A stretch of DNA of 64,000 nucleotides from Nostoc linckia z4. GTDB taxonomy: Bacteria > Cyanobacteriota > Cyanobacteriia > Cyanobacteriales > Nostocaceae. The notes under the pieces are model-generated. The model was given only the letters and a program-made list of their open reading frames with translations, did no database searches and was not told where the DNA came from. A program made the translations under genes and the position numbers. The DNA lies in the NCBI RefSeq assembly GCF_002608075.1, contig NZ_LAHA01000043.1:1-64000 (forward strand), in the 5' to 3' direction. How positions within the stretch are numbered: position 1 is the first letter of the stretch; each line of letters begins with the position of its first letter. Shown here in pieces: positions 515 to 59,723 of this stretch.

Positions 515-1915
515 ATGACATTAGAAGATTCGACTTCCAAAAAAATCAGTTGGTGGGCTGTAGTTGGGCGGTATTTCCGCCGGGAGTTTTTGCCTGTACT
601 GACAGATTTACGACTGGCGATCGCACTATTACTATTGATTGCCATTTTTAGCGCTACAGGTACTGTAATTGAGCAAGGTCAGTCTCCAGCATTTTACCAA
701 GCTAACTATCCAGAACATCCAGCATTGTTTGGTTTCTTAAGTTGGAAAGTAATTCAAGTAGTTGGCTTAGACCATGTATATCGTACTTGGTGGTTTTTAG
801 CATTACTGATTTTATTTGGCACTAGCTTAACTGCTTGTTCTTTTACTCGTCAGTTACCAGCTTTAAAAGCAGCCCAACGCTGGAAATATTATGAAGAACC
901 ACGGGAATTTAAAAAACTAGCTTTAAGTGCGGAATTAGATACTGGTTCTTTGAATTTTCTCAACCAAATTTTACAGAAACGCCGTTATAAAATTTTTTCA
1001 GAAACAGAAAAAGAAAATGTTTTATATGCCCGTAAAGGAATAGTCGGACGTATTGGGCCAATTATCGTTCATATTGGCATCGTCACTATTTTGCTGGGAG
1101 GAATTTGGGGGGCAATGACCGGTTTTCTTGCCCAAGAAATGGTTGCTAGTGGCGATACATTTGAGGTAAAAAATATTATAGATGCTGGCCCTTTGGCAGC
1201 AGGTCAAGTGCCAAAAGATTGGTCTGTGCGAGTAAATCGTTTTTGGATTGATTACACTCCCACCGGAGGGATAGATCAATTTTATTCAGATTTATCTGTT
1301 TTAAATAATCAGGGACAAGAAGTTGACCACAAAAAGATTTTTGTTAACCAACCTCTGCGCTATCATGGCGTCACCTTTTACCAAACTGACTGGGGAATTG
1401 CGGCTGTTCGCGTCCAATTTAATAAAAGTCCAGTTTTCCAGCTACCGATGGTCAAGTTGAATACCAACGGACAAGGTGCAATTTGGGGAACCTGGATTCC
1501 GACTAAACCAGATTTGAGTCAAGGTGTCTCGGTGCTAGCCAAAGATTTACAAGGAATGGTATTAATTTATGATGCCACTGGCAAACTAGTTAATACTATC
1601 CGCGCTGGGATGTCCGCCGAAGTCAATGGTGTGAACTTGAAAATAATAGAGGTAATTGGTAGCACAGGTTTACAAATTAAAGCCGATCCAGGTATACCAA
1701 TTGTTTATTCAGGATTTGCTTTATTAATGTTGGGTGTGGTGATGAGTTACTTTTCCCACTCGCAAGTTTGGGCATTACAAAAAGGCGATCGCTTGTATGT
1801 CGGTGGCAAAACTAATCGCGCTCAAGTCGCCTTTGAACAAGAAGTTTTAGAAATTCTAGATCAATTGAGTTCGCAGCCAAAAAATGAAGATCGAGGAATG
1901 CCAATTCAAGTTTAA
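515..1915 (+). CDS. ccs1: Cytochrome c biogenesis protein Ccs1/ResB
   Basis: Membrane component of the System II cytochrome c maturation machinery, which with CcsA delivers haem to apocytochromes on the thylakoid lumen/periplasmic side. The 466-residue length fits cyanobacterial Ccs1. Visible are membrane segments near residues 33-52, 91-110 and 178-200, a long soluble domain, and a last segment near 398-416. His186 in the third segment (IVHIGIV) corresponds to the conserved haem-related histidine of the family. The usual partner ccdA or ccsA is not inside the window. The ATG follows a repeat-rich leader; no clear Shine-Dalgarno is seen. Family assignment is secure from the overall pattern; membrane limits are by eye. 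Confidence 0.93.
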
Positions 1916-2021
1916 TTGTGATTAGTCATTAGTCATTAGTCATTAGACATCTCCAATAATTACACGTTTTTTAGGTAAATGAGGTAGATGGGTAGGGGCC
2001 AACGGTCGTCGGCCCTTACAA

Positions 2022-2113
2022 TAGACCTCTTGTAATCAATTGCTTTTTGCACTCTTGTGGTCTGGGGACAGGCAAAATACCAAACCTTTCCCCTTTTCCC
2101 GACTTCTGCAAGC
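2022..2113. repeat. Degenerate MITE-like element (TAGACCTCTTG family)
   Basis: Begins with TAGACCTCTTG and ends near a weak inverted copy (GACTTCTGCAAG), with pyrimidine-rich CCTTTCCCC sequence inside. It resembles the better-preserved copies at 21639, 38685 and 48683, but the right end is eroded. Confidence 0.5.
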
Positions 2114-2149
2114 TTAAAAAGGGGGCAACTTCTAAAGCCCCCTTTTTAA
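2114..2149. terminator. Bidirectional Rho-independent terminator
   Basis: A perfect 13-bp inverted repeat, TTAAAAAGGGGGC / GCCCCCTTTTTAA, with a 10-nt loop. A-tract and T-tract flank the GC stem, so it can act on both strands. It sits between the convergent ccs1 and the exported-protein gene at 2332-2961. Confidence 0.8.
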
Positions 2150-2331
2150 GGTAATACAGTTCAGTTAAGCTTTTTTCTCCCTTGCTCCCTTGCTAACTGC
2201 TGTATATTTTGTATCAATTTTCAAGTGATATCATGTCCGCCTAATCACTTGTCAAAAAAATTCTCCGCGTCCCCGCGTCTCCGTGTCAGTCCTAATGATA
2301 AGTCTTCAACCAGACATGATATGAAATGATA

Positions 2332-2961
2332 TTAATCTTCAATGGGTGCATTGGGAATTGCTGCATCAATATCAGCTTGGGATAAATTGGGAATTGACCA
2401 GTTAGGTTCACCGGCTTTGAATACTCTTGCAGGATTAACGTTAAATTCAATAGTACCGGTTTGTGGATTAGTTTTAGCTATTAACTGAGTTCCATCTACA
2501 ATTTTAATAGCCAAAGGTTCTGTCAATGCTTGGCCATCCGCAGCTATACCAGCTACCTTAGTTCCAATCGGTAGGTAAACGCCATCACAATCCCATTCAT
2601 TTTCTGTAATTTGACCATTTCCTAAGAAGTAGAGGGTATTTCCTTGGGCAACTTTTTTAGGTTTATGGGCGTAAATCGCTAGAGTTTTGCCAGTTTCATT
2701 GCGGCATTGTGCCCAGCTTGATGCTGTTTCTAAAATGTACTTTTGTAGCTTCAATTCACCTAATTCTTGCTCAATTTGTTCTGGTGTATATTGAGATTGT
2801 TCTGGTGTATTTTTCAGCTGCAATACATTATTAATTACTTGATTTACTTCGATATAGTCGGGAGTAGTAGTTAAGTCCGGTCTATCAGCCCAAGAAGGTT
2901 GGGCAATTATTAAATTAACTAAAAGTACTAAAGCCACGAGAGCAGTTTTGAAAAGTTTCAC
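2332..2961 (-). CDS. Exported protein of unknown function
   Basis: 209 residues. An N-terminal signal peptide is clear: a Lys-containing start, a hydrophobic run to about residue 20, then a likely signal peptidase I site after AQPSWA. The mature part is acidic with two cysteines (in AQCRNE and EWDCDG) that could form a disulfide. I do not recognise a domain. The start is GTG at 2961, supported by AAAGGACA a suitable distance upstream and by the signal peptide beginning there. It converges on ccs1 and is monocistronic as far as seen. Secretion is well supported; function is unknown. Confidence 0.8.
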   Translation of the reverse strand: MKLFKTALVALVLLVNLIIAQPSWADRPDLTTTPDYIEVNQVINNVLQLKNTPEQSQYTPEQIEQELGELKLQKYILETASSWAQCRNETGKTLAIYAHKPKKVAQGNTLYFLGNGQITENEWDCDGVYLPIGTKVAGIAADGQALTEPLAIKIVDGTQLIAKTNPQTGTIEFNVNPARVFKAGEPNWSIPNLSQADIDAAIPNAPIED

Positions 2962-3084
2962 TTGGATTGTCCTTTTGAGGTTTACAAAAGATTTTCAGTA
3001 TTGAAAATTTTACTAAATGAGACTATTTATTTGAATGGGTTTTTAGCTTTGTTAGCAAACAGTCTCACAAATATTCAGCCATGA

Positions 3085-3801
3085 TTACCCACGAATTTCA
3101 ATGCTTGAGGATGTTGCCAGCTGTCCATTCATTGCATACAGTTTGACAAGCCCAGTTAAACACAAGCAGCTAACTATCAAGGCAATTGGAGTCAGGGAGG
3201 CACTGTCTAAGATAATAAACACACCCAAGCCTATTAAAACGAAAGGAACAAAACCGTTGCCATAACGAGTTAACAGCTGAGAAATTGCAGGCTGGCAAGT
3301 CAGCTTATAGGTTACATAGCACCAAACGCCGACTAACAGCAAGAAGATTGCAACGATCGCCAGCAAACTAGAGGGGGTACTATTAGCAAACAAGGGCATA
3401 TAGATACTGATGTTATCACTACCGTTGGCGATGGTAATAGCCGCCACACTGCAAGCTTGGGGAGATAGAAAACTAATCAAGGAAAAAGAACTAGACAATT
3501 GGGGCTGTACTTCTGACTGAGAATCGTTTTCGGGATTCAACAAACGATTTAGTCCAATGGTGATGGGTATTAAACCCAAAAGACCAATCCAATGGGATGG
3601 CAAAACCAAACCCCCCAGAAAACCAACTAAGCTAGCAATCACTAAAGTACAAAAACCTAGATACTGACCAATCACGATGTGTCGATGCCGGAAAGTTGCA
3701 TTTACCTGAGAAAATAACAGCGTTAAGATAACTAAATCATCGAGGTTTGTAGCTGTAAAAGCTGCTATTCCGGTGGAAAATGCACTGATGAGTTCGTTCA
3801 T
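3085..3801 (-). CDS. CadD-like cation transporter
   Basis: 238-residue polytopic membrane protein resembling the cadmium resistance transporter (CadD) family in length and in the N-terminal segment around ATNLDDLVILTLLFSQ, where the acidic pair after Asn is typical. Further hydrophobic segments at about 40-62, 68-82, 108-125, 140-165 and 175-215 suggest six helices. An Asp-rich site (NGSDNISIY) in the middle is also family-like. ATG at 3801 is preceded by a strong GAGGAGA site. Substrate (Cd, another divalent cation, or something else) cannot be told from sequence. Confidence 0.75.
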   Translation of the reverse strand: MNELISAFSTGIAAFTATNLDDLVILTLLFSQVNATFRHRHIVIGQYLGFCTLVIASLVGFLGGLVLPSHWIGLLGLIPITIGLNRLLNPENDSQSEVQPQLSSSFSLISFLSPQACSVAAITIANGSDNISIYMPLFANSTPSSLLAIVAIFLLLVGVWCYVTYKLTCQPAISQLLTRYGNGFVPFVLIGLGVFIILDSASLTPIALIVSCLCLTGLVKLYAMNGQLATSSSIEIRG

Positions 3802-4202
3802 TTTTATCTCTCCTCACATATTGGTGTGTCTAGGTTAGCGTTAGTTAATATCTGCCAATTTTGGAAAAACTGCGAGTTAATTAAATATGAAATTTGAGAT
3901 TTTGGATAAAATTTTTAAATTTAAAACTATAAAAAATTTCATAAACGACAAATTTGTTTATCTAATTAATCCAAAACACACAATCTAAAATTTTTCATTC
4001 AAGCTGCTTATCAGAAGCTTACAAAAGCAATCATAAATCTCAAATTCCAAATTTTTTAGCTCTATCAATCTGCTTGTGGTAAATTTTATTTTTCTTCAAA
4101 ATCCTGAGGAGAGAGTCTAAGTTTAATCGATAATTATATAGACTAAAATAGCATTGAGACTCTCTGAACATTGGATAATGAAAATCCATTTTTACTCCGC
4201 TT

Positions 4203-4865
4203 TTATTGACGAATCAGCTTTTCCACAACTTTATTGTTTTCACCAAGTTGCTGGTCATCAACAAAGAATTTATTACTAGAACTTTCTTTGGTAAATTTGG
4301 CATTACTTTGGGTATGAAGTCCCGGTAAAATATTTAATTTAACTTCTTTATTATCTTTGGAATTAGGTACTAAAGTTACTTTTAATTCGCTGAGAATTCG
4401 TTGCTGTTCTTTGATGATTTGAGTAAGTTCGTTGAGTTGTTGGGTGTGTATATCATCCAATTTTTCATGGAGTAATTCAATATTTTGTCCAGCCCTCAAA
4501 TTTACTTGGTGGTCAATTTCAGAATTTTTGCGATCGGTATCAGATTGGCGATTTTGACTCATCAAAACGATGGGTGCTGTGTAAGCTGAGGCAAATGAAA
4601 ATACTAAGTTGAGCATCATGAAGGGTGACTCATCCCAGTGGGGAACCCCAGGCATTAAGTTCATACCAACCCATCCCGCCAAAACGGTACTTTGTCCAAT
4701 CAAAAATCCCCAGGAACCAACCTGCGCCGCAAATTTATCAGCAAGGCGTTGTCCGAAAGTCAGTTCTGTAATCGAAGTGTCTGCTGCTGGTTGTATCTCT
4801 ACAACTTGGGGCTTTTGAGTTACTTTTGCATCAACTTTGTTCGATACTGGTTTTAATGTATTCAT
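4203..4865 (-). CDS. DUF1003 membrane protein
   Basis: 220 residues. A DUF1003 core lies at about 35-160: FGQRLADKFAAQVGSWGFL, two membrane helices (FLIGQSTVLAGWVGMNL and FMMLNLVFSFASAYTAPIVL), then the RQSDTDR motif, a helical tail and a coiled-coil-like stretch ending near residue 160. The C-terminal 60 residues are polar and look specific to this lineage. The AAGAGGTG ribosome site 10 bp upstream supports the ATG at 4865. Function of the family is not established; cytoplasmic-membrane location is inferred from the two helices. Confidence 0.85.
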   Translation of the reverse strand: MNTLKPVSNKVDAKVTQKPQVVEIQPAADTSITELTFGQRLADKFAAQVGSWGFLIGQSTVLAGWVGMNLMPGVPHWDESPFMMLNLVFSFASAYTAPIVLMSQNRQSDTDRKNSEIDHQVNLRAGQNIELLHEKLDDIHTQQLNELTQIIKEQQRILSELKVTLVPNSKDNKEVKLNILPGLHTQSNAKFTKESSSNKFFVDDQQLGENNKVVEKLIRQ

Positions 4866-5359
4866 CTTGCACCTCTTGGCGTCGTTTCAATCTGTGTTTA
4901 TCCTGATGACTTTTAATGTACGCTGGTTGAATGATAGGAGCAAATATTCTTTTTTTTTAAATCGATAAATAAAATTGATTGAGAAAAAACCTAAACAGGC
5001 AGTGGGGAGTAATACCACTGGGCGTTCTAAAACTTAATTCGGGAGCAGAGGACAAAAATAACTCCCCAGTCACCCAATAGGGTTTGGGGGAAGGGGGAAG
5101 GGGGAAAGGGGAAAGGGGAAAGGTTTTAAATACATCCAAATCCCCTTACCCCGGTTGGTGAGCTTGTCGAACCATTAACCTTTTCCCAGACCACAAGGGA
5201 AGTTCATACTGCTTATCCGAATCGTATTGACCAGTCAACAATCAACACTCAAAACCAACTTTTTCCCCGACTTTTGCAACAGCATCAGATAAAACAGCCG
5301 ACTTCAGCCGACTGACAAAACAAAGTGCGATCGCTTAGGCTATTGGGCGAAGAGATAAA
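4866..5359. repeat. Gene-free spacer with MITE-like, GGGGAAA-filled element
   Basis: Holds an interspersed element at about 5076-5232. The left end CAATAGGGTTTGG is an imperfect inverted match to the right end CCGAATCGTATTG, with (GGGGAAA)n near the left and a conserved CCCAGACCACAAGGGAAGTTC block near the right. Related copies lie near 7155-7312 and 41665-41909. No gene is seen. Confidence 0.7.
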
Positions 5360-54162: not shown

Positions 54163-54705
54163 CTACTGTCCAACATCCAAGTCGAAGTAGAAACTACCGT
54201 CAACAATTCTATGGCTGCCAATATACTTAATGATGGGTATGCTGACTCGATGCTGTCCTGGTTCAAGTTTCCAGGTTTTTTGGAAGTTCCCAATATGATG
54301 ACAAGCAGCATTAATGGGAAAGGTACTAGGAGTTAAAAAACTATTTTTATAACTCTCAACTCCATTTTTAAATAGATGTCCTTTTACTTCTACTTGATTA
54401 ACTGTAGCTTTGGATGGTATGCAATAATAAACGTTTGATAATCTGAGGGTATCTCTAGATTTTAGGAGTAAGCGATCGCCATTTTTCACTTGCTGAAGTT
54501 CGTTACTATTAACCTGCACAGTGACATTATCAACGCATACTTTTGCCGGACTCACTTTGTCACATGTAGAAGTAGTGGCGCGAGTGGGCTGTGGTTCTGA
54601 AGAAGATTTTTTGTCACCCTCAATTAATGCAGGTGCTACCGTTGCCACTATAGCGCCAGTAGCAGCGATGAGAGCAAGTATAACCTGTTGTTTAAAAGTT
54701 GCCAT
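54163..54705 (-). CDS. Membrane-anchored or exported protein, unknown
   Basis: 180 residues. The N-terminal hydrophobic helix (about 8-28, VILALIAATGAIVATVAPAL) is a signal anchor or signal peptide; the rest is a beta-rich domain with four cysteines (near residues 48, 57, 94, 135), consistent with disulfides in the periplasm. I recognise no domain. GAGGAG 9 bp before the ATG supports the start. It is divergent from the STAND ATPase gene at 54896; whether the two are linked is open. Confidence 0.65.
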   Translation of the reverse strand: MATFKQQVILALIAATGAIVATVAPALIEGDKKSSSEPQPTRATTSTCDKVSPAKVCVDNVTVQVNSNELQQVKNGDRLLLKSRDTLRLSNVYYCIPSKATVNQVEVKGHLFKNGVESYKNSFLTPSTFPINAACHHIGNFQKTWKLEPGQHRVSIPIIKYIGSHRIVDGSFYFDLDVGQ

Positions 54706-54895: not shown

Positions 54896-55966
54896 ATGGA
54901 CTCACAAGAAGCATTAAAATTCATTAATAGGTTGCTTGCAAACGATAAGCAAGTCTTAAATGAATTGGAACAAAAGCTGTTTTTAGGGATGTGGGAGGGG
55001 AAGGAGTATACAGAAATTGTTAATGATGCTTCTTATAGTGCAGAATATGTGAGAGAGGTGGGTGCAAAGTTATGCAAAAAGATTACAAAATATTTAGTAA
55101 TAACGGTTACAAAAAGGAATTTCCAAAATCCCATTAAAGAAGGATATCAAAAGTATTCAGAACAAGCTTCACTTTTCCAAAAACCAATTGTAGAACCAAC
55201 TAATCCACTACTAAAAAATCAATCACACTCAGCTAATTTATTGCAGCAAAATCATAATCCTTTTATTCCCCAAGGCGGCAGAATAGAAGATTCACAACAG
55301 TTTTTTGGAAGGGAACGGGAAATATTGCGGGTATTTGAAGTGCTTAACAGTAATAGTAGTGTTGCCCTCATAGGAGAAGAAGGAATCGGCAAGTCATCTT
55401 TGTTATGGGTGATTTGCCAACAGGCACGAAATTATTTGCGCTTACCACGTGAGCCAGTTTTTTTAGATTTAAATAATGGAGTTCATGATGAAGATGAGTT
55501 CTACATTGCTTTGTGCGATAAAATTGGTATTCCTGAAAGTAAAGGCTATAGACTCACTCGCAATTTGCAAAATAAAAAAGTGCTATTAGCTATAGATAAT
55601 TTAGGGAAGTTAATTGAAAACGGCTTTACTCGCCAAGTTCGGGATCAATTGCGCGGTTTAGCTGAAGGTCGTGATGCTTCTTTGCGGTTGATTTTAGCTG
55701 CTAGCGAACCTCTGGAAAAGCTATTTAACGATAGTCAGGATAATCGCAAGACATCTCCACTAACAGGTATTTGCCAAGAGGAAAATATAAAACCTTGGGA
55801 TGAAATCAGCGCCCGTCATTTTATAACCAACCGTTTGGCTAATACTTCAGTGAATTTTACTGAAGAGGAAATCATCCAACTCATCCAACAAAGTGGCGGA
55901 CATCCTCGTAAACTGATGCAATTGTGTTATCAAACTTATTCGCGGTATGTGGAGAGTTTGCAATGA
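54896..55966 (+). CDS. STAND/AAA ATPase with vMAP-type N-terminus
   Basis: 356 residues. The N-terminal ~75 (EALKFINRLLANDKQVLNEL, then EQKLFLGMWEGKEYTEIV) match the helix-turn-helix-like 'vWA-MoxR associated' N-terminal domain found in cyanobacterial STAND NTPases. After a linker comes a P-loop ATPase: FFGREREI, GEEGIGKSS (160-168), Walker B VLLAIDNL (about 229-236), and a sensor region RLILAAS. It ends soon after the ATPase, without the usual WD40/TPR/effector domain. The stop overlaps no gene, but an ATG-started 75-codon repeat ORF begins at the very next base, and a second ATPase gene follows at 56361. Likely conflict/signalling type. Confidence 0.82.
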   Translation: MDSQEALKFINRLLANDKQVLNELEQKLFLGMWEGKEYTEIVNDASYSAEYVREVGAKLCKKITKYLVITVTKRNFQNPIKEGYQKYSEQASLFQKPIVEPTNPLLKNQSHSANLLQQNHNPFIPQGGRIEDSQQFFGREREILRVFEVLNSNSSVALIGEEGIGKSSLLWVICQQARNYLRLPREPVFLDLNNGVHDEDEFYIALCDKIGIPESKGYRLTRNLQNKKVLLAIDNLGKLIENGFTRQVRDQLRGLAEGRDASLRLILAASEPLEKLFNDSQDNRKTSPLTGICQEENIKPWDEISARHFITNRLANTSVNFTEEEIIQLIQQSGGHPRKLMQLCYQTYSRYVESLQ

Positions 55967-56207
55967 ATGACACCGCTTTTACTTGTGCTTCAACCTCTCC
56001 CTTGCGAAGCCGCGGCGTACACACAAGTCTCTTGGGCTGCATCTCAATTGCATCGACCTACACCTCAATTGCATCGACCTGCACCTCAGTTGTATCGACC
56101 AGCATCTCAATTGCATCGACCAGCATCTCAATTGCATCGACCAGCATCTCAGTTGTATCGACCAGCATCTCAGTTGTATCGACCTGCGCCTTAGTTGCAT
56201 CGACCTG
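55967..56207. repeat. 21-bp tandem array upstream of (xGVA)n ATPase
   Basis: Eight 21-bp units (56040-56207) with consensus CATCTCAATTGCATCGACCAG and variants CAGTTGTATCGACC. The unit lacks stops in several frames, so long open frames exist on both strands; one (55967-56194, 75 codons, heptapeptide SQLHRPA) begins immediately after the ATPase stop TGA. No ribosome site is obvious for it. The remaining spacer to 56361 has no gene. Confidence 0.85.
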
Positions 56208-56360
56208 CAAAAAATTAACCTATTCTACGTTATGTAGTAACTCTAAAAGACTTGTGCATATACTCAAGCCCTTACGAAGAGGGGAGCAAGATTACTCCCC
56301 CTTTTGTGCAAAGGGGGCTGGGGGTTTAGGTTCTTCACGGGTGATGATGGAGGTTAAATA

Positions 56361-59057
56361 ATGACCCCTGTACCCCGCTTAGACTTAAAACCCAAGTTAA
56401 AGCGTCCCCTCTCCCTCTGGAACCCTTTAGATTATCTGCGCCTTTTGTACTGGGTGTTTTTCTTTCCCCAAGCTTTGCGGTGGTATGTGGATGAATTTGG
56501 GGGTGGATATATTACTGAAACAGAAATGAATTGGCAAAAAGGATGGAAATTATTACCTCAAAATCCTATCCAACGTCAGTTAGTTTTCCAAGGATTAGTT
56601 TTAACAATAGTTACGCTTCTAGCTATAAATCTAATTTTTCAGACTCTAAATGTTCACGTTGACTGGTTTGAGGCGGCGTTCGGCGTGGCGTTCGGCGTGG
56701 TAGGAAGCGTGGCGTTTGGCGTGGTGTTGAGCATAGCTTTTGACGTAGCGTTCGGCGTGGCAGGAAGCGTGGCGTTCGGCGTGGCACTAGGTATAGCGGT
56801 AGGTATGGCGGGAAGTGTGGCAGGAAGCGTGGCGTTCGACGTGGCGTTCGGCGGGGCAAAAACCGTGGCGTTCGACGTGGCGTTCGGCGTGGTCAAAGGC
56901 GTGGCGTTCGGCGTGGCGTTCGGCGTGGCAGGAAGCGTGGCGGTAGGTGTGGTGTTCTGCGTAGCGGGAAGCGTGGCGGTAGCCGTAGCGATAGGCGTGG
57001 CATTGGCCGTGGCATTTGCCGTGGCGGAGGGTGTGGCAGGAGGTGTGGCATTCGGCGTGACGGTATGCCTGGCGGTACTACGTCCAGAAACCTGGCTTAT
57101 TGGCTCACTTTTAAACTTGCGAATCATCCGAAACGCTAGCTGGCTACTCCCCCGCATCACTCCGCTTCCTTTTCCTAATCTTGTCTGGCGTTTGGAAAAT
57201 TGGTTGCAAAATGATTGGGAAACAGGCTTACATAATATCAATCAAATGCTGGCATATACCCTACAATTCATTCCTGTTTTCCAAACAGTCAATAAAGTAC
57301 TTATTACAACTCCATCAGAACAGATTATTTGGCGTGTTTCTTTGCTAGCGACAGATCCCTTTGATTGGAAATTAGTAGGTTTTGCTTCAGGTTATTTGAT
57401 AAAACAAATCAAGTTACAACTTGTTAAAGGCTTTGTATTCTTTCGTTATTTCAAGGAACCAATCTCCCTACCCTTAACAGTAGACACTCGCTTAGATACT
57501 CCCGCCCGTGCTGCTGCTGCTGGTTTCTGGCATCTGCATGAAAAACAACCAGCCAAAGCAATAGAGGCTTTTGCTGTAGTGCGTTCTCTCCTTTATGGTG
57601 AGGAAATGTACACCCTTGCCCAAACTCTAGCAACGTTTCACAAAGCCAAAAAACCATCTTCTATTGCTGCTATCCAACTTCCTTCTTTTCCACAGGAACC
57701 GCTTTTACGTCCAGATACCTGGGAAGTTCTCACTCATCTGCGTCGAGTTGTTGAAGATGTCCAGTTTGTTGAACGTAGCGTCTCACGTTTAGCCAAATCT
57801 TTAGCTCTCAATCGAGCATTAGGCGAACTCACAAAAATCCTAAATCAAGCCGATACACTACCGCAAGCAGAGCAAGGCTTAATTATAGATATTGCTCAAA
57901 CTTGGCAAAAAAGCCTTTTACAAATCACTGGTGAAGTGGGAGAAATTTCCATCACCAAGCCTGTGGTTAATCCTTATCTTGTAGGCGACCCCGTTGAAGG
58001 TCATCTCTTTGTTGGGCGAGAAGATATCATCAAACAGTTAGAAGAACTTTGGGTAATGGGTAATCAACTCCAGTCTGTAGTTCTCTACGGTCACAGGCGG
58101 ATGGGCAAAACTTCTATTTTGCTTAACGCTGCTAACTGTCTAGGCTCACAAATACAGCTAGCCTATGTCAACTTGCTACGTTTAGGAGATAGCCCCCAAG
58201 GTGTCGGTGAAGTATTAATGGCAATTTGTGATGAAATTTCTCGAACTGTAAAACTTTCATCCCCAGCTGATGCTGATTTACTAAATCTTCCCTACCGGAC
58301 TTTTGAACGTTATTTAAAACAAGTGGAAGCAAACCTAGACGGTGGGTTAATCATTGCCTTAGACGAGTTTGAGAAAATTGAAGATTTAATTGAAGCCGGA
58401 AAAATTCCTATAGATTTTATGGGTTTTCTGCGGGGGTTGGTGCAAATGAGTTCTAAAATTGCCTTTGCCTTTGCTGGTTTGCACACCTTAGAGGAAATGA
58501 CAGCAGATTATTTTCAACCCTTCTTTGCCAGCGTCATTCCTATTCATGTAGGCTTTCAAGAACGTGCAGCTACTCGCCAAATTCTCGCTAACCCAGGTAA
58601 TGAAGACTTCTCCCTCGACTATATCTTGGAAGCTTTAGATGAAATTTATGCTTTGACACACGGTCAACCATATTTAGTGCAACTCGTGGGTTTTCAGCTA
58701 GTGCGCCGCTACAATGACTTTGTTTTTGAGCAAGGACGACCCCGTGACCCAGTTTTCACAATAGAAGATGTGGAAGCAGTTATTAATGACCCTGAATTTT
58801 TCCAACGGGGAAGCTACTACTTTGATGGAGTTTGGGGTCAAGCCGCGCGGGATGCTGGCGGTCAACAAACAATTGTACAATTACTTGCACCTCATCCAGA
58901 TGGGTTAAGTCTGGATACTTTAGCTCAGTCTACAGGCATGAATGACGCTGATTTACAAAAAGCGCTGAATACTTTGAAGCGTCATGATGTAGTTGAGGAA
59001 ACTCAGGGAAAATGGCGGATTATGGTAGAACTGTTTCGCCGATGGGTTTTACGGTAG
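56361..59057 (+). CDS. AAA/STAND ATPase with 33 tetrapeptide repeats
   Basis: 898 residues, in order: N-terminal region with two hydrophobic segments (about 22-50 and 74-97); a hydrophobic domain of exactly 33 consecutive four-residue units, x-Gly-Val-Ala by consensus (residues 107-238; DNA 56679-57074); a helical linker (about 270-530); an ATPase with LFVGREDI, YGHRRMGKTS (576-585), Walker B GLIIALDEFEKIEDL; a region RQILANPGNEDF; and a C-terminal winged-helix (ADLQKALNTLKRHDVVEET). GGAGG 11 bp before the ATG is a good site. I infer a membrane-anchored ATPase; function unknown. It follows the vMAP-STAND gene. Confidence 0.85.
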   Translation: MTPVPRLDLKPKLKRPLSLWNPLDYLRLLYWVFFFPQALRWYVDEFGGGYITETEMNWQKGWKLLPQNPIQRQLVFQGLVLTIVTLLAINLIFQTLNVHVDWFEAAFGVAFGVVGSVAFGVVLSIAFDVAFGVAGSVAFGVALGIAVGMAGSVAGSVAFDVAFGGAKTVAFDVAFGVVKGVAFGVAFGVAGSVAVGVVFCVAGSVAVAVAIGVALAVAFAVAEGVAGGVAFGVTVCLAVLRPETWLIGSLLNLRIIRNASWLLPRITPLPFPNLVWRLENWLQNDWETGLHNINQMLAYTLQFIPVFQTVNKVLITTPSEQIIWRVSLLATDPFDWKLVGFASGYLIKQIKLQLVKGFVFFRYFKEPISLPLTVDTRLDTPARAAAAGFWHLHEKQPAKAIEAFAVVRSLLYGEEMYTLAQTLATFHKAKKPSSIAAIQLPSFPQEPLLRPDTWEVLTHLRRVVEDVQFVERSVSRLAKSLALNRALGELTKILNQADTLPQAEQGLIIDIAQTWQKSLLQITGEVGEISITKPVVNPYLVGDPVEGHLFVGREDIIKQLEELWVMGNQLQSVVLYGHRRMGKTSILLNAANCLGSQIQLAYVNLLRLGDSPQGVGEVLMAICDEISRTVKLSSPADADLLNLPYRTFERYLKQVEANLDGGLIIALDEFEKIEDLIEAGKIPIDFMGFLRGLVQMSSKIAFAFAGLHTLEEMTADYFQPFFASVIPIHVGFQERAATRQILANPGNEDFSLDYILEALDEIYALTHGQPYLVQLVGFQLVRRYNDFVFEQGRPRDPVFTIEDVEAVINDPEFFQRGSYYFDGVWGQAARDAGGQQTIVQLLAPHPDGLSLDTLAQSTGMNDADLQKALNTLKRHDVVEETQGKWRIMVELFRRWVLR
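56679..57074 (+). repeat. 12-bp coding tandem repeat, 33 units
   Basis: Uninterrupted 12-bp units with consensus TTCGGCGTGGCG, coding FGVA; frequent variants are GSVA, FDVA and FGVV. Not one unit differs in length, so selection or frequent recombination keeps the frame. Charged units (KTVA, KGVA, EGVA, three FDVA) are scattered. Confidence 0.95.
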
Positions 59058-59263: not shown

Positions 59264-59723
59264 AACAGCTGTGTGACCCTACAGATGATTCATCTGTTGC
59301 CAAGATTTTTAGAAATGGTTTCGCTAACCACATTTGCTTGTTCGGGCACTACAATTGCGACTTTGGGCACTACATTTGCGACTTTGGGCACTACATTTGC
59401 TGGTTCGGGCACTACATTTGCTATTTCGGGCACTACAATTGCGACTTCGGGCACTACAATTGCGACTTCGGGCACTACAATTGCGACTTCGGACACTACA
59501 ATTGCGACTTCGGACACTACAATTGCGACTTCGGGCACTACAATTGCGACTTCGGGCACTACAATTGCGACTTCGGGCACTACAATTGCGATTTCGGCGA
59601 CAGCATTTGCTAAACTGTTCCACATTTAACTTGCATATATTGGGCGGGCGAGACGCCCACCCCACAAGAAATGTGCAATTTAAGATTATGCAAACTAAAT
59701 GTGGTTTAGCTAATTGTTACAAC
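59264..59723. repeat. Second 21-bp tandem array
   Basis: Twelve 21-bp units at 59341-59592 (consensus TTCGGGCACTACAATTGCGAC) plus a partial, degraded unit. Like the array at 56040, it has a 21-bp period and a CAATTGC core but otherwise different sequence. Open frames occur on both strands (for example a heptapeptide GTTIATS repeat) and are a consequence of the period. The right flank carries GGGCGGGCGAGACGCCCACC, related to 29271. Confidence 0.9.

What the first reader, a model, noticed from the sequence alone, without database searches (positions are those of the whole stretch)
56361..59057. ATPase with 33 perfectly phased xGVA tetrapeptides: a possible new membrane domain
Seen: 33 consecutive 12-bp units without one length deviation encode x-G/S-V-A repeats (residues 107-238). 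In a helix, period 4 puts small residues at i, i+4, i+8, like a very long glycine zipper. Charged units (FDVA, KTVA, KGVA, EGVA) break the hydrophobic stretch into segments. Known: the C-terminal ATPase (YGHRRMGKTS, DEFEK) plus winged helix resembles archaeal/STAND ATPases, many of which act in conflict systems. Inference: a membrane-inserted pore or packing module driven or gated by a sensory ATPase, encoded next to a second STAND ATPase (54896). I know of no described system with this architecture.
Basis: partly seen in the sequence, partly recalled or inferred. Interest (0 to 1): 0.78.

Follow-up and report, generated by a model that had tools for sequence, protein, structure and literature searches.

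The report
Swappable membrane cassette on paired ATPases
In filamentous cyanobacteria a conserved pair of immune-type ATPase genes carries an exchangeable membrane segment, and the striking four-residue repeat noticed here is one version of that segment, which makes it a probable but untested conflict or cell-death system.

Summary
In detail: residues 107-238 of the 898-aa ORF are 33 phased x-G/S-V-A units. They are not an isolated curiosity. (1) The protein is gene 2 of a two-ATPase pair. An nSTAND1 gene (window 54896) precedes it in 29 of 29 relatives with an intact 5' end and is absent in 5 of 5 decayed relatives with enough upstream DNA. (2) Gene 1 swaps its N-terminus (CHAT caspase-like, trypsin-like, HTH) over a constant NTPase. 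(3) Gene 2 swaps its membrane segment. Loci 82-95% identical in DNA on both sides hold an xGVA array in one and a largely unalignable, non-array or only weakly repetitive hydrophobic domain in the other; a second paralogous pair shows the same difference. (4) Arrays occur in the same slot in three paralogous subfamilies. Their DNA is a 9+3 repeat in which synonymous choice depends on repeat position: valine is GTG in the fixed slot (267/286) but not in the variable slot (0/49). Best reading: a membrane-acting two-STAND conflict system with a polymorphic membrane cassette, of which the xGVA array is one class. The anatomy is well supported; the function is inferred; the fold of the array is unresolved.

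The parts
54163..54705 (-). Divergent gene of 180 aa: hydrophobic N-terminus plus predicted beta-sandwich domain; possible third member of the cassette
   Evidence: Present near the pair in 17 of 29 relatives with intact gene 2 and in one decayed locus; no Pfam family above cut-off; AF2 beta-sandwich, pLDDT 72, weak RhoGDI/PDE6D/Ig-like matches
54896..55966 (+). Gene 1: 356 aa, N-terminus HTH-like by eye (no Pfam match) plus nSTAND1 NTPase
   Evidence: Pfam nSTAND1 3.5e-09 above cut-off; linked in 29 of 29 loci; N-terminus variable in relatives
56039..56209 (.). 21-bp tandem repeat in the 394-bp gap between gene 1 and gene 2
   Evidence: Tandem Repeats Finder
56361..59057 (+). Gene 2: membrane STAND-like ATPase, 898 aa
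56421..56489 (+). Conserved N-terminal segment NPLDYLRLLYWVFFFPQALRWYV, residues 21-43; core LL[YF]W..F.P shared by the three paralogous subfamilies
   Evidence: 27 of 29 rows of A1, and all 5 subfamily B/C peptides tried
56496..57945 (+). Exchangeable region, outer limits as seen in relatives (in L022 vs L014 about residues 59-337): predicted TM segment, array and helical linker
   Evidence: DNA similarity stops near gene-2 bp 135-175 and resumes at bp 1013 (L022), 1137 (L042) or 1585 (L028) in otherwise 82-95% identical loci; limits transferred to the window by position
56580..56636 (+). Predicted first transmembrane segment, residues 74-92
   Evidence: Hydropathy 2.35
56679..57074 (+). 33 x 12-bp array encoding x-G/S-V-A, residues 107-238
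58008..58442 (+). AAA/STAND ATPase core, Walker A GHRRMGKTS (577-585), Walker B LDEFE (667-671)
   Evidence: invariant columns; fold match
58872..59000 (+). C-terminal winged-helix-like segment, residues 838-880
   Evidence: HTH_IclR 5.4e-04, below cut-off; AF2 helices and hairpin

Best explanation
The window gene is the second gene of a conserved two-gene unit that encodes two STAND-type ATPases (shown by linkage and joint loss). Gene 2 is most likely an integral membrane protein made of a conserved N-terminal segment, an exchangeable membrane cassette, a helical linker, an Orc/Cdc6-like ATPase and a winged helix. The xGVA array is one class of this cassette. It is kept in register and homogenised by gain and loss of whole 12-bp units, under selection to stay hydrophobic and small-residue rich (turnover is inferred from codon homogeneity). 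Inferred mechanism: gene 1 and gene 2 ATPases respond to a danger signal, assemble in an NTP-dependent way, and drive two outputs. Gene 1 contributes its swappable N-terminal effector or adaptor (caspase-like, trypsin-like or HTH). Gene 2 changes the packing of its membrane cassette so that the membrane is permeabilised or its state is sensed. The swapping of the cassette on a constant ATPase fits an arms race or self/non-self recognition. The likely result is cell death or dormancy that protects the filament.
For: Linkage: gene 1 in 29 of 29 loci with an intact gene 2 start, absent from 5 of 5 decayed loci with at least 3.6 kb upstream. All three gene-2 paralogues that I identified in this genome follow a small P-loop ATPase gene (Pfam). 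Variable N-termini of gene 1: CHAT above cut-off in L021 and L024, Trypsin_2 1.1e-15 in L040, GerE in L037 and L043 (10 of 30 detected gene-1 copies scanned). Cassette exchange: L022 vs L014 94.5% identical upstream to gene-2 bp 175, then only a 70% stretch (769-957), then 92.3% from bp 1013; L028 vs L030 90.4% to bp 135, nothing to bp 1585, then 85.5%; trees of the two parts disagree; array vs non-array also in subfamily B. Arrays in one slot in three subfamilies. Hydropathy: 6 windows above 1.6 in this protein and 4-6 in the 8 others computed, arrayed or not. Patchy: 77 of 192 family genomes, 30 of 386 phylum genomes, some of them fragments. The themes match published nSTAND1 conflict proteins with caspase and trypsin N-termini (PMC8195603, passages read).
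Against: No defence or death function has been shown. PADLOC gives only weak hits, to the ATPase and HTH parts. No plasmid record carries a relative at 1e-40, and in many Nostoc loci the same chromosomal neighbours recur, so it is not obviously mobile. AF2 gives no confident fold for the array. By one recalled biological hydrophobicity scale many of the array windows are only marginally membrane-inserting. HTH domains on gene 1 and a winged helix on gene 2 would also fit a transcriptional regulator. In L043 gene 2 has a weakly HTH-like N-terminus and no array. The pair is not always tight: 2.5 kb apart in L031, 394 bp in the window.
Confidence: 0.55

Rival explanations
1. The array is a neutral repeat expansion that the membrane slot tolerates: any hydrophobic filler will do, and 12-bp slippage happens to keep the frame.
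For: Unit number varies from 10 to 38 among phased slots; array-free alleles exist (L028, L032, L034, L036); units are homogeneous at synonymous sites (0.82 within arrays vs 0.31 outside); L078 (G187) has a frame break inside the array.
Against: Arrays recur in the same slot in three subfamilies. Among matches of the repeat alone in 292 phylum genomes, 14 of 16 (13 of 15 genomes) lie in this gene family; the other two are antisense to unrelated repeats. Diversity at the first two bases of the x codon exceeds synonymous diversity at G, V and A in 23 of 27 arrays (means 0.45 vs 0.18; exceptions L025, L033, L060, L066), which a neutral homogenised repeat should not show.
Confidence: 0.25
2. A membrane-tethered sensor and transcription regulator (MalT- or one-component-like): the cassette senses membrane state and the winged helix or the HTH of gene 1 controls genes.
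For: HTH on gene 1 in some relatives (GerE) and a weak winged helix on gene 2; a maltose-system regulator structure (8bob) among the fold matches.
Against: Gene 1 can instead carry a CHAT caspase-like or trypsin-like domain, which argues for an effector position. The cassette is exchanged wholesale, which is unusual for a housekeeping sensor.
Confidence: 0.25
3. Apparent cassette exchange is only fast divergence of a weakly constrained membrane region.
For: Membrane regions can evolve fast; linker identity is intermediate in some pairs; in subfamily B protein identity falls and rises by degrees (0.65, 0.42, 0.42, 0.28, 0.12, 0.42, 0.54, 0.60, 0.68, then about 0.9).
Against: Abrupt loss of DNA similarity between flanks of 92-94.5% identity in L022 vs L014, and different resumption points in other pairs (bp 1013, 1137, 1585). 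The N-terminal-plus-middle tree places L028, L032, L034 and L036 outside lineages in which their ATPases nest (midpoint rooting, support values not read). An L028-like cassette recurs at 59% in another genus (G175).
Confidence: 0.1

Closest known systems
nSTAND1 conflict proteins with swappable N-terminal effectors (Kaur et al. 2021, PMC8195603, passages read)
   Same: Gene 1 has nSTAND1 above the Pfam cut-off, with CHAT, trypsin or HTH N-termini in some relatives
   Different: Here it is tied to a second, membrane-type ATPase gene; nSTAND1 occurs once in that paper's text, in another context
Two-gene nSTAND2 operon (same paper, section 15, passage read)
   Same: Two adjacent genes, each with a STAND NTPase core; variable modules
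   Different: There one NTPase is eroded and GT4 or HEPN effectors are most common; here both P-loops are intact in the window and no GT4/HEPN was found in the proteins scanned; nSTAND2 hits occur only below cut-off in the subfamily C gene 1 (17.7 and 21.7 vs 24 bits)
ATPase_2 / Orc-Cdc6-like and STAND ATPases (SSO1545, PABY2304, NLRs)
   Same: Core fold, Walker A and B
   Different: Membrane cassette N-terminal to the ATPase; no C-terminal TPR or WD platform found
Membrane-associated two-gene EACC1 system (Kaur et al. 2020, PMC7159879, passages read)
   Same: Membrane segment with an unusual patch of small residues, suggested to sense rather than merely anchor
   Different: One TM segment with a constant caspase, not a long tetrapeptide array on an ATPase
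Glycine-zipper / GASright helix packing and MscS TM3 (recalled, not tested)
   Same: Small residues at i, i+4 over a whole helix face
   Different: 132 residues of it; no structure

Membership tests
STAND / ATPase_2 class (gene 2) | Walker A and Walker B of a P-loop NTPase | tested here: met
   G577-S585 and D668-E671 invariant in 29 of 29 rows
STAND / ATPase_2 class (gene 2) | Curated profile score | tested here: not met
   ATPase_2 30.9 vs 33.2 bits; AAA_16 26.1 vs 32.6. I therefore call gene 2 STAND-like, not a certified member
STAND / ATPase_2 class (gene 2) | Orc/Cdc6-like AAA+ fold with winged helix | tested here: inconclusive
   Best PDB fold matches 2qby, 2qen, 2fna and NLRs, but TM-scores are low and the model is only partly confident; HTH_IclR below cut-off
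STAND class (gene 2) | C-terminal superstructure repeats (TPR, WD, LRR) as sensor (defining feature recalled) | tested here: not met
   No such Pfam hit; the protein ends after the winged helix
nSTAND1 (gene 1) | PF20703 above cut-off | tested here: met
   37.2 vs 27.1 bits; 9 of 10 relatives scanned above cut-off, L024 below at 24.8
nSTAND2 two-gene operon | One inactive STAND partner; GT4 or HEPN effector | tested here: not met
   Both P-loops intact in the window pair; no GT4/HEPN hit among the proteins
VMAP / MoxR-vWA ternary systems | MoxR ATPase and vWA genes at the locus | not tested
   Window ORFs from about 50.6 to 62.2 kb were only listed; no profile search for MoxR or vWA was made
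Anti-phage defence system | Protection against phage | not testable with these tools
   PADLOC hits weak and not system-level
Glycine-zipper membrane helices | Small residues at i, i+4 in a transmembrane helix | tested here: inconclusive
   Sequence pattern met; helix predicted but mostly at pLDDT below 50

The most novel reading that the evidence does not exclude
A self/non-self recognition or immunity locus of filamentous cyanobacteria in which a pair of STAND ATPases drives a polymorphic membrane cassette. The cassette is exchanged between strains by recombination in the conserved flanks. In the xGVA class, diversity at the variable residue is maintained above neutral level, while position-specific synonymous codons keep the DNA strictly in 12-bp register, so that the array can gain or lose units without losing frame or phase.
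Probability: 0.2. Interest if true: 0.85.

Novelty: new variant of a known kind. Interest (0 to 1): 0.62.

Why it matters
STAND ATPases are switches of cell death and immunity in plants, animals and bacteria. A two-STAND unit whose membrane segment is exchanged like a cassette, on a constant ATPase at a recurring chromosomal site, would give multicellular bacteria a polymorphic membrane-acting immune or recognition locus. It would make testable whether filaments use such loci to kill infected or non-self cells. The xGVA array is also an apparently undescribed way to build a membrane domain from a 12-bp repeat, with codon use that depends on repeat position.

Tried and rejected
A sequence search of the PDB gave nothing useful. 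No relative on plasmids at 1e-40. The idea of a single universal DNA motif was rejected: GGCGTGGCG is the modal core in 20 of 27 arrays, but other cores (for example GGTGTAGCA in L067, GGCGTAGCG in L040) dominate elsewhere. A diversity-generating retroelement as the source of x diversity was considered from the NNA pattern of x codons; no search for one was made. A first regular expression for the N-terminal signature was mis-spaced and gave 0 of 29; the corrected one gives 27 of 29. The Fisher tests treat units as independent, which they are not. While checking this report I found that I had read two of the repeat-only hits in the wrong frame: L065 is a subfamily B protein with array and P-loop, and the small repeat ORF of L072 lies antisense to a longer ORF with TPTAKPTA repeats; the counts above are the corrected ones. 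L065 was not in the codon counts.

Full report
Observation. The ORF at 56361-59057 encodes 898 aa. In the register starting at residue 107 there are 33 consecutive four-residue units up to residue 238. Shuffling the slot residues never approaches the phased score: 83 against a maximum of 16.5 in 500 shuffles.

Relatives. A scan of named bacterial genomes gave 41 loci encoding a relative, from Nostoc and other Nostocales to Okeania, Planktothricoides and Stenomitos. I aligned 28 full-length ones with the window protein (A1, 29 rows). The 13 others were left out because they were cut by contig ends, decayed, masked, or (L043) lacked the usual N-terminus. The slot between residues 101 and 243 is phased beyond all 500 shuffles in 25 of 29 rows. 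Of these, about 20 are long arrays and 5 are weak or broken (L022, L024, L025, L026, L042). L028, L032, L034 and L036 were reached by 70, 231, 1 and 6 of 500 shuffles. In the nine proteins whose hydropathy I computed, arrayed or not, four to six windows exceed the usual threshold in the first 330 residues. I conclude that the slot is a membrane module and that the array is one way to fill it. AF2 draws helices there but with pLDDT mostly below 50, so helix packing, a pore or any other structure is inference.

Cassette exchange. In pairwise DNA comparisons, L022 (Calothrix) and L014 (Nostoc carneum) are 94.5% identical through more than 5 kb of upstream DNA and the first 175 bp of gene 2, share only a 70% stretch at bp 769-957, and are 92.3% identical again from bp 1013. 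L014 has an array; L022 has no clean one. L028 and L030 are 90.4% identical up to bp 135, share nothing to bp 1585, and are 85.5% identical after that; L030 has an array and L028 has none. L042 against L030 behaves similarly (82% to bp 154; 74% at 761-1083; 86% from 1137). As a control, L014 and L015, both with arrays, align at 92.2% straight through. Mean identity is 0.76 for the ATPase part and 0.40 for the slot; N-terminal identity correlates with the middle (0.86) but poorly with the ATPase (0.29). Trees of the N-terminal plus middle part and of the ATPase disagree for L028, L032, L034, L036 and L022 (support values not read). An L028-like cassette recurs at 59% identity in another genus (G175) and an L034-like one at 47% in a third (G112). 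In a paralogous pair at another site (subfamily B), the window genome and G006 share gene 1 at 88.6% and the rest of gene 2 at 85.3%, but the first ~620 bp of gene 2 do not align in DNA: G006 has a clean array, the window genome a non-repeat hydrophobic domain. There the protein identity changes by degrees rather than abruptly, so divergence is not excluded for that pair.

Gene pair. Gene 1 (54896-55966) is an nSTAND1 protein. It precedes gene 2 in 29 of 29 loci with an intact gene-2 start (25 judged by tblastn and four, L019, L023, L040 and L044, by their full-length ORFs; in L031 at 2.5 kb). It is also present in L043, absent in 5 of 5 decayed loci with at least 3.6 kb of upstream DNA (L039, L049-L052), and could not be judged in 6 loci cut by contig ends. 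In seven loci (L014, L015, L017, L020, L022, L034, L036) the last base of gene 1's last codon is the first base of the gene-2 start codon, as in a coupled operon; in the window the gap is 394 bp. The gene-1 N-terminus varies: CHAT in L021 and L024, Trypsin_2 in L040, GerE HTH in L037 and L043, and no Pfam name in the other five of ten scanned. The other two gene-2 paralogues of this genome (contigs 82 and 47), and those in G006 and G395, also follow a small P-loop ATPase gene, 2 to about 900 bp away. A divergent gene (54163-54705) with a beta-sandwich model accompanies the pair in 17 of 29 loci.

DNA of the array. In 286 strict xGVA units from the window gene and subfamily A relatives with ORFs of at least 640 aa, fixed valine is GTG in 267, glycine GGC in 229 and alanine GCG in 247. 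Valine in the variable slot is GTA in 43 of 49 and GTG in none, and glycine there is GGA in 43 of 50. In the wider set of 44 genes from all three subfamilies, 15 of the 17 that have a variable-slot valine never use GTG there; L003 and L070 do, once each. Of those genes, 27 had at least 8 strict units and were used for the next two numbers. Synonymous identity is 0.82 within and 0.68 between arrays, against 0.31 for the same residues outside arrays. The first two bases of the variable codon are more diverse than synonymous sites in 23 of 27 arrays (0.45 vs 0.18; exceptions L025, L033, L060, L066). This fits concerted turnover of 12-bp units with diversity kept at the variable residue. An unknown DNA-level constraint is not excluded, and arrays are related by descent, so the counts are not independent.

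Distribution. At 1e-60, 77 of 192 family genomes and 30 of 386 phylum genomes have a match, a number of them fragments. A query of the repeat alone hit 15 of 292 phylum genomes with 16 matches. Of these, 14 matches in 13 genomes lie in this gene family (in L070 the fetched frame ends before the ATPase); L068 and L072 are antisense to unrelated repeats. In the window's own genome the array DNA matched, at E below 0.1, only itself and the slot of the contig-82 paralogue.

Mechanism. Shown: linkage and joint loss, modular N-termini of gene 1, replacement of the membrane cassette at one site, array homogenisation. Inferred: membrane insertion, NTP-driven assembly, and an action on the membrane in a death, dormancy or recognition response. 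The closest published theme is nSTAND1 proteins with caspase or trypsin N-termini and two-gene STAND operons (PMC8195603, passages read). The specific pair and the xGVA array were not found in the papers searched: the terms FGVAFGVA and GVAVGVAVG, GVAFGVAF, GVAGGVAGGVA, VGVAVGVAVGVA gave no paper, and six topic searches gave none that I recognised in the listings. PMC10907252 was seen as outline and abstract and PMC12691664 as one passage. The library is open-access only.

Noticed in passing
window 56039-56209 and 59341-59597: Two 21-bp tandem repeat arrays (about 8 and 12 copies) flank gene 2 on both sides; both are long enough to open accidental ORFs.
   Followed up: no
L078 (G187), ORFs 3388-4155 and 1467-3788 on the minus strand: The array is split over two overlapping frames in a one-contig genome: either a phase-changing mutation inside the array or a sequencing error.
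   Followed up: partly
L072 (G073), minus strand: An ORF of 304 aa with a long TPTAKPTA repeat; its antisense reads as VGLAVGVA repeats and so mimics the array.
   Followed up: partly
L068 (G421, a 1.7-Mb genome), minus strand: A 461-aa ORF with a pilin-like N-terminus (by eye) carries a long (GNGVGNGI)n repeat.
   Followed up: no
L076 (G006), 4853-5260: A small ORF that looks like a PIN-domain protein by eye lies between gene 1 and gene 2 of the subfamily B pair.
   Followed up: no
window 54163-54705 (-): Conserved divergent gene of unknown family next to the pair, predicted beta-sandwich; still present in decayed locus L052.
   Followed up: partly
L037 gene 1 and gene 2: Coding-sequence insertions of repeats (TPPFFRGAGGD in gene 1, SPQTPLQKGGLRE in gene 2).
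   Followed up: no
L043, 5348-7458: A gene 2 relative whose N-terminal half has a weak HTH_3 hit and no array, fused to the same ATPase.
   Followed up: partly
window, whole length: Many heptamer to nonamer tandem repeats (54 rows, all periods together, in Tandem Repeats Finder).
   Followed up: no
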